The notes under the pieces were generated by a model that worked only from the letters and a program-made list of their open reading frames with translations, did not search any database and had not been told where the DNA came from. 12,124 nucleotides of DNA from Acidimicrobiaceae bacterium (lineage in GTDB: Bacteria > Actinomycetota > Acidimicrobiia > Acidimicrobiales > MedAcidi-G1), in contig PACE01000029.1 of NCBI GenBank assembly GCA_002699725.1, positions 11,942 to 24,065 of the forward strand. Reading direction: 5' to 3'. Position numbers and translations under genes: made by a program. Positions 7,430 through 12,124 of this stretch are shown in pieces (position 1 is the stretch's first letter; the number at the start of each line of letters is the position of its first letter).

Positions 7430-8506
7430 ATGGAATGGATCGAGACAACCGGAGCGACAGTCGACGATGCCAAGGAGCGGGCACTGGACCGCCTGGGTGT
7501 GGCCGAGGACGAGTTGGAGTACGAGATCCTGGCAGAGGCTTCACGATCGATGCTGGGACTAAAGAAGACCGATGCCCGGCTGCGGGCACGGGTCCGTCCA
7601 CGCGCGCCTCGTCAGAGGGTCGAGCGCAGGGACCGGGATCGCAGTCGAGGCCGTCGAGGCGACCGGTCCCGGGCCGGCAAGGGCAAGGGGAACGGGCGCA
7701 ACGACGGTGGGCAGGGCGACGGGAACAAGCAGCGCGGCGACCGGGCGAAGAAGGGCGACGGGAACAGGCAGCGCAACGACGGTGGGCAGGGCGACGGGAA
7801 CAAGCAGCGCGGCGACCGGGCGAAATCGGGTGGTGGGGAAAGCAAACGTGCTGATCGGGCGAAGCCGTCAGCGGGTTCCTCGGACGGGGATTCGAAGGAG
7901 ACGTCGTCGAGTCGACGCCGGGGAAGGGGCTCTGGCGTTTCGGGGGAAGCCAGGACGGGCGTAGAGTCCACCAGCGATGATCGGGCCAGTGCCGGTCGGG
8001 ACGAAATCGTGCCGGATCCGGCGCCTAAGGGAGAGCAGATGGAATTAGAGACCCAGTCGGAGATCGTCGAGGCTTTTGTCACGGGCCTGCTCGACGAGAT
8101 GGGACTCGATGCCCGTGTCGTGAGCACAATCGAGGACGATCGCCTCTCGGTCGAGGCGCAGGGCCTGAACCTGGGCCGCGCTATTGGCCATCGTGGCGAG
8201 ACGGTCCGCGCCATTACCGAGATCGCCCGCACGATTGTCCAGCGCAGGTCCGAAGGAGATGCGGTGGGCTTTCTGAGCGTCGACGTCGGGGGCTACCGGG
8301 AACGCCGCCGGACCTTCCTCGAGGAATTCGCCCGGAATCAGGCCGATGCGGTCCTCGACGATGGACGGGCACGAGCACTCGAGCCGATGGGCTCTGCCGA
8401 TCGTAAGGTCATCCACGACACGGTCTCGGAAATTGACGGTGTCGAGACCGAGTCCGAGGGCTCCGATCGGGATCGCCGGGTGGTGATCCGGCCCGGCGCC
8501 GACTGA
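7430..8506 (+). CDS. jag: Jag/KhpB-type RNA-binding protein (Jag_N, KH, R3H)
   Basis: RNA-binding protein encoded next to yidC in most Gram-positive bacteria; Jag/KhpB relatives bind RNA and affect cell elongation and division. The Jag_N domain is residues 1-53 (WIETTGATVDDAKERALDRL, with the MLGLKK turn). Residues ~55-200 are a low-complexity basic linker with a duplicated 18-residue segment (90-107 and 115-132). The KH domain is about 208-286, with the GxxG loop IGHRG at 252-256. The R3H domain follows, with RKVIH (325-329) supplying the RxxxH motif. The ATG at 7430 has GAGGAAG upstream, inside the end of yidC. The linker is much longer than in B. subtilis, and together with the YidC tail it adds a second basic disordered segment to the same operon. 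Confidence 0.94.
   Translation: MEWIETTGATVDDAKERALDRLGVAEDELEYEILAEASRSMLGLKKTDARLRARVRPRAPRQRVERRDRDRSRGRRGDRSRAGKGKGNGRNDGGQGDGNKQRGDRAKKGDGNRQRNDGGQGDGNKQRGDRAKSGGGESKRADRAKPSAGSSDGDSKETSSSRRRGRGSGVSGEARTGVESTSDDRASAGRDEIVPDPAPKGEQMELETQSEIVEAFVTGLLDEMGLDARVVSTIEDDRLSVEAQGLNLGRAIGHRGETVRAITEIARTIVQRRSEGDAVGFLSVDVGGYRERRRTFLEEFARNQADAVLDDGRARALEPMGSADRKVIHDTVSEIDGVETESEGSDRDRRVVIRPGAD
7696..7824 (+). repeat. 54-bp exact direct repeat inside the jag linker
   Basis: Bases 7696-7749 and 7771-7824 are identical over 54 bp, with starts 75 bp apart. The repeat is in frame and encodes RNDGGQGDGNKQRGDRAK twice. The intervening 21 bases (KGDGNRQ) are a decayed partial copy of the same theme. Perfect nucleotide identity, including third positions, points to a recent duplication or ongoing slippage. 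Confidence 0.9.
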
Positions 8507-8514
8507 GTACAGCA

Positions 8515-9126
8515 ATGGACGGCGGTGTCGGGCGGGTGCTCGACGCTGCGGTCGACGAGGGTTTCCTTACCTCCGGTGCGGCGTCCGAGGGGTTTCGTCA
8601 CAGTTCCGGCTTCCTTGCCGGCACTCCCCTGCCCACTGCAGGCCAGTCCGCCGTGGATTTGGGCTCCGGTGGTGGTCTCCCGGGACTGGTTCTGGCGACC
8701 CTTACGAACTGCAATTGGTTCCTGGTGGAGCGCAGCGAGCGCCGTTGTCGCTTCCTCGAATGGGCGGCGCGGTCCCTTGAGGTTTTCGACCGCGTGTCGG
8801 TTGTGCACGCCGACGCCACGGAGGTGGGACGGGGCGAGCTGCGCTGCTCGGTGACGCTGGTGACGGCGCGGGCATTCGGACCACCGGGCGTCACCATTGA
8901 ATGTGGGGCGCCCCTCCTGGCCGATGAGGGACACCTGGTCGTGAGCGAACCACCGGAAGACGGACGGGCCCGCTGGCCGGAGGATCCCCTGGGAGAACTG
9001 GGCCTCTCCGATGCGGGTGCCTGGGAGCACGAGGGGGCCCGATTTCAGGCATTCCGGTCGGACGGACCTTGTGGCGACCGGTATCCGCGTGCCTGGAAGG
9101 CAATTGAACGTTCGCCAGTGTTCTGA
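8515..9126 (+). CDS. rsmG: 16S rRNA (guanine527-N7)-methyltransferase RsmG (GidB), divergent
   Basis: S-adenosylmethionine-dependent methyltransferase expected to modify G527 of 16S rRNA in the small-subunit decoding region; loss in other bacteria gives low-level streptomycin resistance. The 203-residue product has the SAM-binding motif I VDLGSGGGLPGL (47-58), the acidic residue ending strand 2 (VERSERR, E72), VVHADATEV (97-105), TARAFGPP (117-124, matching the family's [ST]RA[FV]), and the C-terminal YPRAWKAIERSPVF in place of the usual YPRxxGxPxxxPL. The core is clear but the second half is short and divergent. The ATG at 8515 is 8 bases after the jag stop with a poor Shine-Dalgarno. The position after jag supports the assignment. 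It appears to be the last gene of the rpmH cluster. Confidence 0.88.
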   Translation: MDGGVGRVLDAAVDEGFLTSGAASEGFRHSSGFLAGTPLPTAGQSAVDLGSGGGLPGLVLATLTNCNWFLVERSERRCRFLEWAARSLEVFDRVSVVHADATEVGRGELRCSVTLVTARAFGPPGVTIECGAPLLADEGHLVVSEPPEDGRARWPEDPLGELGLSDAGAWEHEGARFQAFRSDGPCGDRYPRAWKAIERSPVF

Positions 9127-9197: not shown

Positions 9198-9578
9198 TCA
9201 GCCGCCGTCGAGTTCCCCGGAGAGGTCGGATAGCCATCCCTGGAGTTCCCCCAGGGCCTGTCTGGCCTCCGCTCTTTGATGCGGGCTCAGGGACCGTGGT
9301 TCCCGGGCGGTGAGGCGCGTGTCGATGGTGTCGGACCAGGCCCTCAACAGTTCGGGCAGAGTTCCCCCACCGGTGCCCGCGCGCGGCGTTCCGGAACGTC
9401 CGGCACTGGCGCCGTCGCGCAGGAGTTGTTCGAGGGAATCCACGGAAACCTTCCAGGGGGAATTCTCGGTCGGGCCCTTGAGGCCCTCGACCCGCTCCTC
9501 CTTGAGCCATCGTCGGATCGTGGAGGCCTCGTATCCGAACCGCCGTGAGGCTTCCTTGAGGGAGACGTACTCGGCCAT
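9198..9578 (-). CDS. Small MerR/excisionase-type helix-turn-helix protein
   Basis: A 126-residue protein not recognised as a named family member. Residues 4-50 are a classic MerR/excisionase-like winged helix-turn-helix: YVSLKEASRRFGYEASTIRRW (helix 1, turn, recognition helix) then KEERVEGLKGP and a tryptophan in the wing (PWKVSVDSLEQLL). Residues 55-75 are a Gly/Ser/Thr linker, and 76-123 form two amphipathic helices (LPELLRAWSDTIDTRL and AEARQALGELQGWLSDLSGEL) that could dimerise or bind a partner. No transmembrane segment or catalytic motif is seen. GGAG lies 4 bases before the ATG at 9578. It converges on rsmG and diverges from the coiled-coil gene across the phased repeat region, where a MerR-type dimer could bind. 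Likely a DNA-binding regulator or site-recognition factor; the role is inferred. Confidence 0.75.
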   Translation of the reverse strand: MAEYVSLKEASRRFGYEASTIRRWLKEERVEGLKGPTENSPWKVSVDSLEQLLRDGASAGRSGTPRAGTGGGTLPELLRAWSDTIDTRLTAREPRSLSPHQRAEARQALGELQGWLSDLSGELDGG

Positions 9579-9978
9579 GGAACTCCGATTGTGGGGTTCG
9601 ACGCATGGGATTCGCCGGATCGGACGGGTTCCGACATGGTAGCCCGATGGACAACGATGGGGAGCGATAGTTGGCTACTGGTGTCGAATTTGGCCATCCC
9701 GTTTTCCCGTGGATAGTTCTGTCGATCGCCTGAGCCAGGGCTTGGTCAGGGGGAGGAGGGCAGGAGATGAGTCTCGGAAGGCCCCGGATAGTTCCGAACA
9801 CTCCGGAGGTTTCCGAAGGGTTCGGAACTGTTCGGATCCGAAGAATCCCGGATCGAGAAGGCCCCATCCGGGGGAGGGCTGACGCCAGGTCCTCGGATAC
9901 TCGGAGGATCGAGCAAGCGTCTACGCCAAAGGGATCGGGTCCGGTCCGTGCCCTCCGTGGTGGTTGAATGAGTTCTCA
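9579..9978. promoter_or_regulatory. Divergent intergenic region between two helix-turn-helix genes
   Basis: About 400 bp, and about 490 bp if the downstream gene starts at 10072. It holds the first phased repeat block (9791-9842). Looser copies of the same theme occur at 9596-9632 (GGTTCGACG, GATTCGCCG, GATCGGACG, GGTTCCGAC) and 9892-9912 (CTCGGATA, CTCGGAGG). The heptamer GATAGTT occurs three times, at 9666, 9712 and 9787, twice as GGATAGTTC. A strong Shine-Dalgarno (AGGAGG, 9754-9759) precedes an ATG at 9767 that opens a 66-codon frame running to 9967 through the repeat block. Its codons (ATA, AGA, AGG, CGA) are unlike those of the neighbours, so it is probably not a normal gene but could be a leader peptide. 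No confident -35/-10 pair was found, and no parS-like TGTTTCACGTGAAACA is present. Confidence 0.55.
9791..9842. repeat. Phased palindromic repeat block A (TTCSGAA units every ~10 bp)
   Basis: Successive units start at 9792 (TTCCGAA), 9802 (TCCGGA), 9811 (TTCCGAA), 9821 (TTCGGAA) and 9831 (TTCGGA, continuing to TCCGAA at 9837): steps of 10, 9, 10 and 10 bp, close to one helical turn. Larger symmetries are built from them. GTTCCGAAC (9791-9799) and GTTCGGAAC (9820-9828) are perfect 9-bp inverted repeats. TTCCGAA-GGG-TTCGGAA (9811-9827) is a near-palindrome. TTCGGATCCGAA (9831-9842) is a perfect 12-bp palindrome. Sites on one face of the helix suit cooperative binding by a small dimeric DNA-binding protein, as at operator arrays or plasmid centromeres. 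Function is inferred. Confidence 0.8.
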
Positions 9979-11142
9979 ATGGACACTCCGAACCCTTCGA
10001 ACAGTTCGGAGTATTCCGAACCCTTCGAACTGTCCGCCACGACGCGGTCTGCCGGCACTACGGTCGGCACCATGGATCCTGCGCCCACATCGTCGACCTT
10101 CACCTCCCCGGTTGGCCCCGTTCGGCGCGGTCCTGCGGGCGAGGACGAGTTGTACCTCGACGAGATCCTGTCCCTGACGCCCATCAAGCGCACCCGCCTG
10201 TACACCTTTCGGGACCAGGGCCGGTTCGGGCCCGTGCGCGAGGCACCGGGCCCCACCTGCCCTCGCCCGGTCTTTCTCCTCGAGGGCGTTGCCGGCGTCT
10301 GCGAGGAATTGGGCTATCCGATCCCGACCGTTGCCGACATCCTCGCCTTCCGTAGCACAGGAGTGCCAACGGCCAGCGGCGACGACATCGTCGAGACCAC
10401 ATGGCAGGACTCGTTGGTGAAGGCGTCTCCGGAAACCAACGTCGATCCCGCTCGCGCCCGGGTTTCAGGCTTGGAATCCGTTCCCGGGACGGCGCAGCAC
10501 CGCACTGAACTCGAATTGGAGCAACGCGGGGACGTACTCCGGGCTCGCGATCCAGATCGGGGTCTCACCACACGCGTGGAGGACCCCAACAGGCAGGCGA
10601 TCGAAGCGGCGCTCCACGAGGAGCGGGCCCGGCAGTTGGAAGAGGAGAACGAGGCCTTGCGCGCCGAAAGGGATCGGGCGAGGGCCGAGGAAGTGTCGGG
10701 TCGGGAGCGTGTCATCACCCTCGAAGCCGACCTCCGGATCACAGAAGCGGCGAGAGAGCGGGCACTCGAGGACCTGGTTGGCCGTGACGCCCGCATCAGA
10801 CGCCTCGAGAGCGACCTGGAGGAACGGACAGCGGAAGCACATCGCCTGAATGCCGAACACCGTGGCGTTCAGGGAGAACTCCGCCATGCGGTCGCCGAGC
10901 TTGATGCGGCCCGTGGGGAGCGCAACGACCTCCGCGGCGATCGCGACGCCCTTCGGGAGGACGTAAGCGATGCACGTGAGGAGAATGCTGCATTACGACC
11001 TGAGGTCGAACTGCTCCGGGCAAACACCACGAGGGGATTTCGGCGCCGTCAGAGGCGTCAGGCGAAGCGCGACGCGAAGCCCGGCGTGGACACCGCATCT
11101 GCTGATGAGGCCGAGGTCTCGTCGACCGACGAGTCGGCCTGA
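9979..11142 (+). CDS. HTH-coiled-coil protein, RacA/KfrA-like architecture (unknown family)
   Basis: A 387-residue protein I do not recognise. Residues 1-50 are low-complexity Ser/Thr/Pro. Residues ~58-120 look like a MerR-type helix-turn-helix (YLDEILSLTPIKRTRLYTFR then DQGRFGPVRE, and a following helix LEGVAGVCEELGY). After a linker, ~207-350 is a long charged coiled coil (EERARQLEEENEALRAERDR and similar heptads). It ends with a basic patch (GFRRRQRRQAKRDAK, 353-367) and an acidic tail. An HTH followed by a coiled coil is the layout of RacA (B. subtilis chromosome anchor) and KfrA (plasmid stability), but no homology is claimed. Start is uncertain: TTG 9964, ATG 9979 (weak GAG upstream, chosen) and ATG 10072 are in frame. 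A 10072 start would leave repeat block B non-coding. Likely binds the flanking repeats. Confidence 0.7.
   Translation: MDTPNPSNSSEYSEPFELSATTRSAGTTVGTMDPAPTSSTFTSPVGPVRRGPAGEDELYLDEILSLTPIKRTRLYTFRDQGRFGPVREAPGPTCPRPVFLLEGVAGVCEELGYPIPTVADILAFRSTGVPTASGDDIVETTWQDSLVKASPETNVDPARARVSGLESVPGTAQHRTELELEQRGDVLRARDPDRGLTTRVEDPNRQAIEAALHEERARQLEEENEALRAERDRARAEEVSGRERVITLEADLRITEAARERALEDLVGRDARIRRLESDLEERTAEAHRLNAEHRGVQGELRHAVAELDAARGERNDLRGDRDALREDVSDAREENAALRPEVELLRANTTRGFRRRQRRQAKRDAKPGVDTASADEAEVSSTDESA
9985..10036. repeat. Phased palindromic repeat block B at the 5' end of the coiled-coil gene
   Basis: Units start at 9987 (TCCGAA), 9996 (TTCGAA), 10005 (TTCGGA), 10014 (TTCCGAA), 10024 (TTCGAA) and 10033 (TCCG): steps of 9, 9, 9, 10 and 9 bp. 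ACTCCGAAC (9985-9993) and GTTCGGAGT (10004-10012) are a perfect 9-bp inverted repeat. TCCGAACCCTTCGAAC is a 16-bp exact direct repeat at 9987-10002 and 10015-10030. The motif GAACTGTTCG (or GAACTGTCCG) is shared with block A at 9825-9834 and occurs here on both strands. If the gene starts at 9979, the block encodes TPNPSNSSEYSEPFELS; if it starts at 10072, it is an upstream operator or centromere-like site. Confidence 0.8.
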
Positions 11143-11194: not shown

Positions 11195-12124
11195 TCAGGC
11201 TTCTGGGGAGGTGGTGGGGTCCGCTGCCCAGGCGGACACTGCCACAGTTAGTTGATCGGCGAGTTCGGCGGTGGCGGGAACCACCGACGGCGGGGGAGCC
11301 AGCGTGCAGAGCACCGCCGGCATCCGTGTTCGACGCAGGATCGGGAGCCTCATGCCGCGGACAGCGACCTCGGTACCGGCCATACCGTCGGCCAACACCT
11401 GTTTGAGGGCTGCGGCGCAACGTTGGGCCAGACGGAGGCCGCCCTCGCTGTGGAAGCCTTCGGTGGCGAAGTATGCAACCTCCGGGGCGGACAGGCTCTC
11501 GATGCGGAGCCCGAGGTAGGCCTCCGCCTCGAACCGGTTGGCCGTGGCGGCCTGGGTGGTGTCGTCCGGATGGTCGAGGGCGACGACGTTTGCACCACGG
11601 GTTCGCAGACCGCGCGACAGTGCGGCGGCGAGGGCGCCGCAGCTGCCGAAGTGGCCCAGGGCGATCCGCCGTTCGTCGAGGTCGGGTCGGCTGCGCAGAA
11701 GTAGGTCGAGTTCTCGAACCTGGGCCACAGGGGTGGTACCGGCTGAACGGCCGGCCAGGTGGCGGAGGGATCGGACCGTGGCGGCGCCGGCGATGCCATC
11801 CAGGATGAGGCCGGAATTGCGCTGGAAGTCCCGAAGTGCGGCCGATGTGTCGGTCCCGAAGATCCCGTCGATCCGACCGGCATTGAATCCGAGGCTGCCA
11901 AGCCGTAACTGGAGGTCGGCCACGTCGTCGCCGCGCAGCATCGGGGCATGCAGGTAGAGGTTGCGGTCGCCCAGTCGGTATCCGGCCTCGATCAGCGACG
12001 ACAGCGTGTGTTCGTCGACGAGGCCGTGTTCATGGAGGCCGCGTTCGGCCTGGAAGCGGGCGACCTGGGCCGATGTGTCTTCTCCGTAGTGGCCCGCGGT
12101 GGCCTCGGCAGGGACAACGGGATG
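11195..12124 (-). CDS. CwlM-like peptidoglycan-binding protein with degenerate amidase_3 domain (5' end cut)
   Basis: 309 residues are visible; the frame stays open to the window edge, so the start lies outside. Residues ~11-47 are the end of a first peptidoglycan_binding_1 domain (YGEDTSAQVARFQAERGL). About 63-125 is a second one (RGDDVADLQLRLGSLGFNAG, then FGTDTSAALRDFQRNSGL). The rest resembles N-acetylmuramoyl-L-alanine amidase (amidase_3): ANRFEAEAYLGLRI aligns with the family's ANrxxADlFxSIHaN, and MRLPILRRTRMPAVLCTL with the VLrxtxxPavLvElGF strand. Key residues are gone: Arg in place of the second zinc His, Thr in place of the catalytic Glu, and no Glu after the first GH. In mycobacteria CwlM sits in this neighbourhood and is a cytoplasmic, non-hydrolytic regulator of MurA; a similar regulatory role is inferred. 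Confidence 0.82.
   Translation of the reverse strand, partial: HPVVPAEATAGHYGEDTSAQVARFQAERGLHEHGLVDEHTLSSLIEAGYRLGDRNLYLHAPMLRGDDVADLQLRLGSLGFNAGRIDGIFGTDTSAALRDFQRNSGLILDGIAGAATVRSLRHLAGRSAGTTPVAQVRELDLLLRSRPDLDERRIALGHFGSCGALAAALSRGLRTRGANVVALDHPDDTTQAATANRFEAEAYLGLRIESLSAPEVAYFATEGFHSEGGLRLAQRCAAALKQVLADGMAGTEVAVRGMRLPILRRTRMPAVLCTLAPPPSVVPATAELADQLTVAVSAWAADPTTSPEA

What the first reader, a model, noticed from the sequence alone, without database searches (positions are those of the whole stretch)
9791..10036. Two blocks of helically phased TTCSGAA palindromic units beside oriC
Eleven short units of the TTCCGAA/TTCGGAA/TTCGAA/TCCGGA type occur in two blocks about 140 bp apart (9791-9842 and 9985-10036), spaced 9-10 bp within each block. 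They build several perfect inverted repeats, a 12-bp palindrome and a 16-bp direct repeat. Regular spacing of one helical turn suggests cooperative loading of a protein along one DNA face, as at plasmid centromeres or multi-site operators. The location, where parAB normally sits and between two HTH genes, makes a centromere-like or anchoring site a reasonable idea. An alternative is a simple autoregulatory operator.
Basis: partly seen in the sequence, partly recalled or inferred. Interest (0 to 1): 0.72.

Follow-up and report, generated by a model that had tools for sequence, protein, structure and literature searches.

The report
Protein-binding arrays in the parABS slot
Next to the replication origin of a little-known group of actinobacteria, the usual chromosome-partition genes are missing and in their place sit two new DNA-binding-protein genes with conserved, evenly spaced site arrays between them, which may be a substitute for the missing chromosome-sorting system.

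Summary
The two blocks are the only runs of three or more 9-10-bp-phased YCGRA cores in the window (7 units, 9773-9838; 5 units, 9987-10030); no shuffle reached 5. In all six genomes of the genus block 2 is the best-conserved intergenic stretch (77% identity; 40% between blocks), with spacing 9-9-10-9 in four. Block 1 is variable. Elsewhere in these genomes phased triplets occur at chance level. The arrays lie between gene A (126-aa wHTH) and gene B (wHTH, long coiled coil, basic end), found in 6 of 6 genus genomes and 0 of 113 other relatives. A and B occupy the rsmG-[parA-parB]-cwlM slot. ParB, ParB_N domains, Soj-type ParA and parS were found in 0 of 6 genus genomes but in most relatives; SMC is kept in 5 of 6. 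Block 2 abuts a conserved, apparently leaderless promoter of B. Most likely the arrays are cooperative BldC-like sites bound by A and/or B, at least an operator of B. A centromere role replacing parABS is plausible but unproven.

The parts
9773..9838 (.). Block 1: 7 near-palindromic units (core YCGRA) spaced 10,10,9,10,9,10; in part an inverted copy of block 2
   Evidence: run of 7; intergenic shuffles reach 3 at most; 14-bp perfect inverted match to block 2; aligned cores kept in 1-5 of 6 genomes, so loosely conserved; own run of 5 in G003, 3 in G005
9987..10030 (+). Block 2: 5 units, spacing 9,9,10,9, direct repeat of about TYCGAACNN; contains the 16-bp direct repeat
   Evidence: four cores kept in 6 of 6 genomes, the fifth in 5 of 6; same spacing in 4 of 6; G004 has 6 units; best-conserved 55-bp windows of the intergenic region lie on it
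10031..10038 (+). Conserved end of the array, NGTCCGCC, near the -35 position of gene B's promoter
   Evidence: present in 6 of 6 genomes (TGTCCGCC in 5, CGTCCGCC in G005), ATG 33 bp downstream in 5 of 6, 32 in G005 (the script printed +0 for G001 because of an ATGG directly after the array; its sequence gives 33 for the start codon)
10059..10064 (+). Putative -10 element TACGGT of gene B, 7 nt before the ATG (leaderless transcript likely)
   Evidence: TACGGT in 5 of 6, TACCGT in G002
10072..11142 (+). Gene B, 356 aa: MerR-like wHTH (about residues 18-95), disordered linker, about 164-residue helix (172-335) with a basic stretch TRGFRRRQRRQAKR at its end, acidic tail
   Evidence: 6 of 6 genus genomes, 0 of 113 other relatives
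9198..9578 (-). Gene A, 126 aa: wHTH with BldC-like Arg-Trp in the recognition helix plus two C-terminal helices
   Evidence: 6 of 6 genus genomes, 0 of 113 other relatives
9636..9673 (-). Putative gene A promoter: CAACTATCGCTCCCC, 17 bp, TACCAT
   Evidence: Read from the alignment: element in 6 of 6 (one change in G001), 17-bp spacer and TANNNT in 6 of 6; single match in window
8515..9126 (+). rsmG (gidB), left border of the former parAB slot
   Evidence: GidB, E 4.3e-15; same order in 6 of 6
11195..12124 (-). cwlM-like peptidoglycan-binding protein (runs off the window; gene name by recall), right border of the former parAB slot
   Evidence: PG_binding_1; same order in 6 of 6; sister genus: rsmG-parA-parB-cwlM

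Best explanation
The two blocks are cooperative binding arrays for the small winged-helix protein A and/or the coiled-coil protein B that flank them. Subunits load side by side on successive 9-10-bp sites, as BldC does on direct repeats, and build a short nucleoprotein filament. Block 2 lies against the -35 region of a conserved, probably leaderless promoter of gene B, so filament formation there should control B (operator). The whole unit A-arrays-B stands where parA-parB-parS stand in related genera. Because strongly phased arrays are found at this one place only, the filament probably also has an architectural role at the origin: a centromere-like or origin-anchoring complex bridged by B's long coiled coil. 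Shown: array, phasing, conservation, uniqueness of strong arrays, promoter geometry, gene slot, ParABS not found in the genus. Inferred: which protein binds, cooperativity, regulation. Least certain: the centromere role.
Confidence: 0.58

Rival explanations
1. Plain autoregulatory operator: A and B are ordinary transcription factors that moved into the slot when parAB was lost; the arrays only regulate their two divergent genes and have no role in chromosome positioning.
For: Divergent regulator pair with sites between them; block 2 fixed at the -35 region of gene B in 6 of 6. BldC itself is a transcription factor. Weaker sites elsewhere are not excluded.
Against: No other phased triplet arrays above chance in six genomes, so the regulators would have few strong targets. 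Block 1 is about 110 bp upstream of A's putative -35 and 200 bp from B's promoter. G002 has an array in a convergent 3' region. B's 164-residue helix with a conserved basic end is unusual for a plain regulator. The pair sits in all six genomes of the one genus where ParABS was not found in any member.
Confidence: 0.38
2. Centromere-like or anchoring site proper: A and/or B on the arrays form the partition or polar-anchoring complex that replaces ParB-parS, perhaps also the SMC loading platform; the operator role is secondary, as at plasmid centromeres.
For: ParA, ParB and parS not found in the genus, A and B present in exactly that slot. B has the domain order wHTH-coiled coil-tail described for RacA and pSK1 Par. 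SMC kept in 5 of 6. Strong array unique to the origin region. G002's non-promoter array.
Against: No NTPase gene directly beside A and B (neighbours are rsmG and the cwlM-like gene); only about 12 units at one place, unlike the dispersed RacA sites (recalled); no sequence homology to any partition protein found. Some bacteria live without ParABS and need no substitute, and five other relatives without ParB and parS hits lack A and B.
Confidence: 0.35
3. The arrays are targets of an unrelated global regulator (for example a BldC-type protein encoded elsewhere), not of A or B.
For: BldC-like spacing; weak HTH_BldC-like matches exist elsewhere in the genus.
Against: No gene in the six genus genomes passes the BldC cut-off; such weak relatives also occur in parAB-bearing genera whose scanned origin loci lack arrays; a global regulator should have arrays elsewhere (chance level).
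Confidence: 0.1
4. Neutral repetitive DNA, or an extended N-terminus of gene B read as repeats.
For: The frame of gene B stays open upstream through block 2 in the window (TTG start at 9964).
Against: Block 2 is better conserved than any other intergenic stretch; unit spacings change by single bases and the block-to-ATG distance is 32 in G005, 33 in the other five; not repeated elsewhere.
Confidence: 0.03

Closest known systems
BldC of Streptomyces (MerR-like head-to-tail filament on 9-bp direct repeats)
   Same: 9-bp repeat period; YCGRA-type core at the same spacing as in the published whiI site; A's recognition helix aligns without gaps with the Arg30-Trp31 pair matched; fold match.
   Different: A is 126 aa with two extra predicted C-terminal helices and does not match NCBIfam's BldC model; units are near-palindromic and occasionally 10 bp apart; AATT only partly present; locus tied to the origin region, not to a developmental regulon.
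RacA of Bacillus subtilis (wHTH + coiled coil, chromosome anchoring)
   Same: B is predicted as MerR-like wHTH, long helix, disordered end (architecture of RacA as described in PMC11500499, passages); wHTH fold match to RacA-DNA.
   Different: Sites form one compact array, not dispersed ones (RacA's dispersed sites are recalled); no sequence match; partner such as DivIVA not tested.
pSK1 Par (single-protein plasmid partition system) and RocS
   Different: Two proteins rather than one; chromosomal; no tblastn match in 72,556 plasmid records; a membrane anchor was not looked for.
ParABS
   Same: Same genomic slot near the origin; DNA-binding-protein genes next to clustered sites.
   Different: No ParB, ParB_N domain, close ParA or parS found in the six genus genomes.

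Membership tests
ParABS chromosome partition system | ParB family protein | tested here: not met
   TIGR00180 0 of 6 genus genomes, 102 of 113 others; PF02195 0 of 6, 22 of 25 others
ParABS chromosome partition system | parS sites | tested here: not met
   0 of 6 genus genomes with up to 2 mismatches, 94 of 113 others; consensus typed from recall
ParABS chromosome partition system | Soj-type ParA beside ParB | tested here: not met
   Close ParA (58-100% identity to the query from G007, G007 included) 0 of 6 against 38 of 43; only a 30-33% paralogue in 5 of 6, a kind also present in parAB-bearing relatives
BldC family (protein A) | Passes the curated BldC protein model | tested here: not met
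   A is not among the hits to NF033787 at E <= 1 nor among G000's hits
BldC family (protein A) | MerR-type wHTH with the base-reading Arg followed by Trp | tested here: met
BldC family (protein A) | Head-to-tail binding to 9-bp direct repeats | tested here: inconclusive
   9-bp spacing present and conserved, but units are near-palindromic and binding was not measured
RacA / pSK1 Par type (protein B) | wHTH, central coiled coil, C-terminal disordered tail | tested here: met
   Predicted (wHTH 26-95, helix 172-335, residues 338-356 below pLDDT 50); definition from PMC11500499 passages
RacA / pSK1 Par type (protein B) | Homology to RacA or Par beyond the generic wHTH | tested here: inconclusive
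RacA / pSK1 Par type (protein B) | Required for DNA segregation or plasmid stability | not testable with these tools
   Needs an experiment

The most novel reading that the evidence does not exclude
An actinobacterial genus has discarded ParABS and evolved, in the same slot near oriC, a new chromosome partition or origin-anchoring module: a small BldC-like protein that polymerises on two phased arrays and a RacA-like coiled-coil partner, with the array serving as both centromere and promoter operator, and possibly as the SMC loading site.
Probability: 0.33. Interest if true: 0.9.

Novelty: new variant of a known kind. Interest (0 to 1): 0.72.

Why it matters
[quoted passage not shown] Here, in six draft genomes of one genus, ParA (Soj type), ParB and parS were not found, and the slot holds a conserved pair of genus-only DNA-binding-protein genes with phased arrays. 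If the arrays are a centromere, this is a natural replacement of the chromosomal partition system and makes a clear question testable: what do SMC and the origin need once ParB-parS is gone? If they are only an operator, the locus is still a clean BldC-like filament operator in a genus where no gene passes the BldC model.

Tried and rejected
Repetitive-element explanation: rejected, single locus for phased triplets. Array older than A and B: rejected for the loci seen; 30 parA/parB loci (27 relatives, about 108 kb, mostly 1.5 kb either side of the match) have no run above 2. Coding repeat upstream of B: rejected. Mobile origin of A/B: no relative found in viral contigs or plasmid records; the phage-record collection was not searched; PHROGs gave generic HTH, terminase and excisionase-like matches for A and nothing at E <= 0.1 for B. 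Distant relatives within the class: the A profile found one 34.6-bit hit (G427) besides genus members, next to ABC-transporter-like frames in the 4.5 kb I read, with no origin gene recognised; the B wHTH profile found none outside the genus; each of these two samples held 395 genomes, 3 of them of the genus. Solved structures by sequence: no meaningful hit for A; for B only coiled-coil or engineered proteins. Foldseek alone: no hit at E <= 0.001. Profile comparison of B's wHTH with BldC and of A with B: no signal. The looser two-unit pattern was first read as possible extra sites; five of its 28 non-locus hits were held as loci and all five lie inside long open frames (252-538 codons). Papers: the listings of searches showed no title or abstract start describing ParABS loss or an A/B-like locus in this group; the library lacks most subscription papers. 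The RacA structure paper was not held, so RacA's dispersed sites are recalled. Taxonomy look-up of one record name found nothing.

The reversed-pattern control was replaced as main control by the shuffles.

Full report
What was checked. The window is G000:C27:11942-24065 of a 2.1-Mb draft genome. It carries the origin region: gyrB, recF, dnaN, dnaA, yidC, jag and rsmG frames followed by gene A (-), gene B (+) and a cwlM-like gene (-) (rsmG and the PG-binding gene by Pfam, the other names from the translations by recall). With a neutral core YCGRA and 9- or 10-bp steps, the two blocks are the only runs of three or more on either strand of the window; 5,000 intergenic shuffles gave at most 3 and 400 window shuffles at most 4, against 7 and 5 observed. 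The units are near-palindromes, so each block also reads on the other strand.

Comparison within the genus. Proteins A and B were found in all six genomes of the genus (own plus G001-G005) and in none of 113 other relatives. In 395-genome samples of the class, 3 of them genus members, only one weak HTH hit for A and none for B's wHTH appeared outside the genus. Four of the five relatives have contigs of the same length as named records: JARQPW010000016.1 (Acidimicrobiales bacterium ActinoDeep01), DEAL01000002.1 and DCXR01000019.1 (labelled Candidatus Microthrix sp.), JACNKQ010000035.1 (Actinomycetota bacterium). Gene order rsmG-A-B-cwlM holds in 6 of 6.

The array under drift. In the alignment of the A-B intergenic region mean pairwise identity is 0.77 in block 2, 0.57 in block 1, 0.40 between the blocks and 0.87 in the first codons of A. 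Of 438 sliding 55-bp windows the best lie on block 2; the best window not touching it (0.71) lies on the putative promoter of A. Four of block 2's five cores are kept in 6 of 6 genomes and the fifth in 5 of 6; block 1's seven aligned cores are kept in 3, 2, 4, 5, 1, 4 and 2 of 6. Spacing 9,9,10,9 occurs in G000, G001, G003 and G005; G004 has 9,10,9,10,9, i.e. a 19-bp unit repeated; G002 reads as six units at 9-bp steps, one of them degenerate. In the block 1 region G003 has a run of 5 of its own, G005 a run of 3, G004 two pairs, G002 one pair, G001 none. G002 also has a run of 6 at exactly 10-bp spacing in the convergent rsmG/A intergenic region.

Uniqueness. A pattern of three phased units has 53 matches in the six genomes; overlaps and both strands are counted, so these are not 53 arrays. 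43 lie in the rsmG-to-B interval and 10 elsewhere (2, 2, 2, 1, 1, 2 in G000 to G005). Dinucleotide shuffles of G000's 37-kb origin contig without the arrays predict 1.7 per 2.1 Mb, so the hits elsewhere are at chance level. The tool's reversed-pattern control gave 10 hits, 8 of them in G001, but is a poor match in composition (0.08 expected). A looser 17-bp two-unit pattern with up to 3 mismatches gave 34 hits in G000, 6 at the locus and 28 elsewhere, against 4 for its reversal; dinucleotide content predicts about 20, and the five non-locus hits held as loci all lie inside long open frames. Weak or single sites elsewhere are thus not excluded.

Promoter geometry. In all six genomes the array ends in NGTCCGCC, followed 20 bp later by TACNGT and, 6-7 nt after that, by the ATG of B. 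This looks like a -10 element of a leaderless transcript with the array's end near the -35. Upstream of A, on the other strand, CAACTATCGCTCCCC, 17 bp, TANNNT is kept in 6 of 6 (one change in G001). Block 1 lies about 110 bp upstream of that element, so it is not a close operator of A.

The parABS slot. In sister-genus genome G007 the order is rsmG-parA-parB-cwlM. ParB: 0 of 6 in the genus, 102 of 113 in other relatives. The wider ParB_N domain: 0 of 6 against 22 of 25. parS with up to two mismatches: 0 of 6 against 94 of 113. Close Soj-type ParA: 0 of 6 against 38 of 43 (the query's own genome among the 38); 5 of 6 genus genomes keep a 30-33% paralogue of a kind that parAB-bearing relatives also have. 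Because the contigs span the slot itself in all six genomes, the absence there is not an assembly gap; absence elsewhere rests on 85-97% complete drafts. SMC is found full length in 5 of 6; G005, in 410 contigs, has no full match. Of the 11 other relatives without a ParB hit, 10 are under 90% complete and 6 still have a parS match; five (G009, G031, G047, G083, G084) have neither, and none of the 11 has A or B. So ParB loss or a gap in the draft without A and B may occur; what singles out the genus is that all six members lack ParABS and all six have A and B.

Mechanism. BldC binds 9-bp direct repeats head to tail, with an arginine reading a YpG step; its optimised site is a repeat of AATTCGGAC (PMC5859096, passages). 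Block 2 scores 31 of 45 in five phased units against that 9-mer, above all of 500 mononucleotide shuffles (maximum 27). The simplest reading is a cooperative wHTH filament on block 2, with A the leading candidate and B the alternative, controlling B's promoter. The architectural or centromere role is an inference from the slot, the missing ParABS, B's RacA/Par-like domain order, the uniqueness of the strong array and the non-promoter array of G002. I give about 0.58 to the filament/operator explanation with probable architectural role, 0.35 to a genuine centromere or anchor and 0.38 to a plain operator; these overlap.

Compared with the known. It is not ParABS: three defining features tested, none met. 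It works like BldC operators and like the wHTH-coiled-coil partition proteins RacA, pSK1 Par and RocS (PMC11500499, passages), but membership in none of these is established. PMC4255298 (passages) says that all actinobacteria possess ParABS; this genus is an exception on present evidence. I found no paper on it in searches (listings only), in a library that lacks most subscription journals.

Noticed in passing
window 9636-9673 (-): Genus-conserved element CAACTATCGCTCCCC, 17 bp, TANNNT upstream of gene A; the -35-like CTCCCC is unusual and may belong to another sigma factor or an activator.
   Followed up: partly
L090 1397-1456 (G002:C7): Six-unit array at exactly 10-bp spacing directly after the rsmG stop codon, in the convergent rsmG/A intergenic region of the most divergent genus member.
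   Followed up: partly
G000:C42:7723-8409 and counterparts: An orphan ParA-like ATPase (30-33% identical to the Soj-type query) is found in 5 of 6 genus genomes and in parAB-bearing relatives; its role in the genus without ParABS is open.
   Followed up: no
window 7430-8506 (+): The jag/khpB-like frame (name by recall) carries an internal near-repeat in its linker (NDGGQGDGNKQRGDRAK twice).
   Followed up: no
window 9198-9578 (-), gene A: Weak PHROG match of A to terminase small subunits (E 1.8e-5, residues 2-109) and best VIA-align rows to viral DNA-packaging proteins, suggesting a possible distant phage ancestry.
   Followed up: partly
G001 whole genome: The reversed triplet pattern used as control hits 8 places in G001 but 0-1 in each of the other five genomes, which suggests an unrelated phased repeat there.
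   Followed up: no
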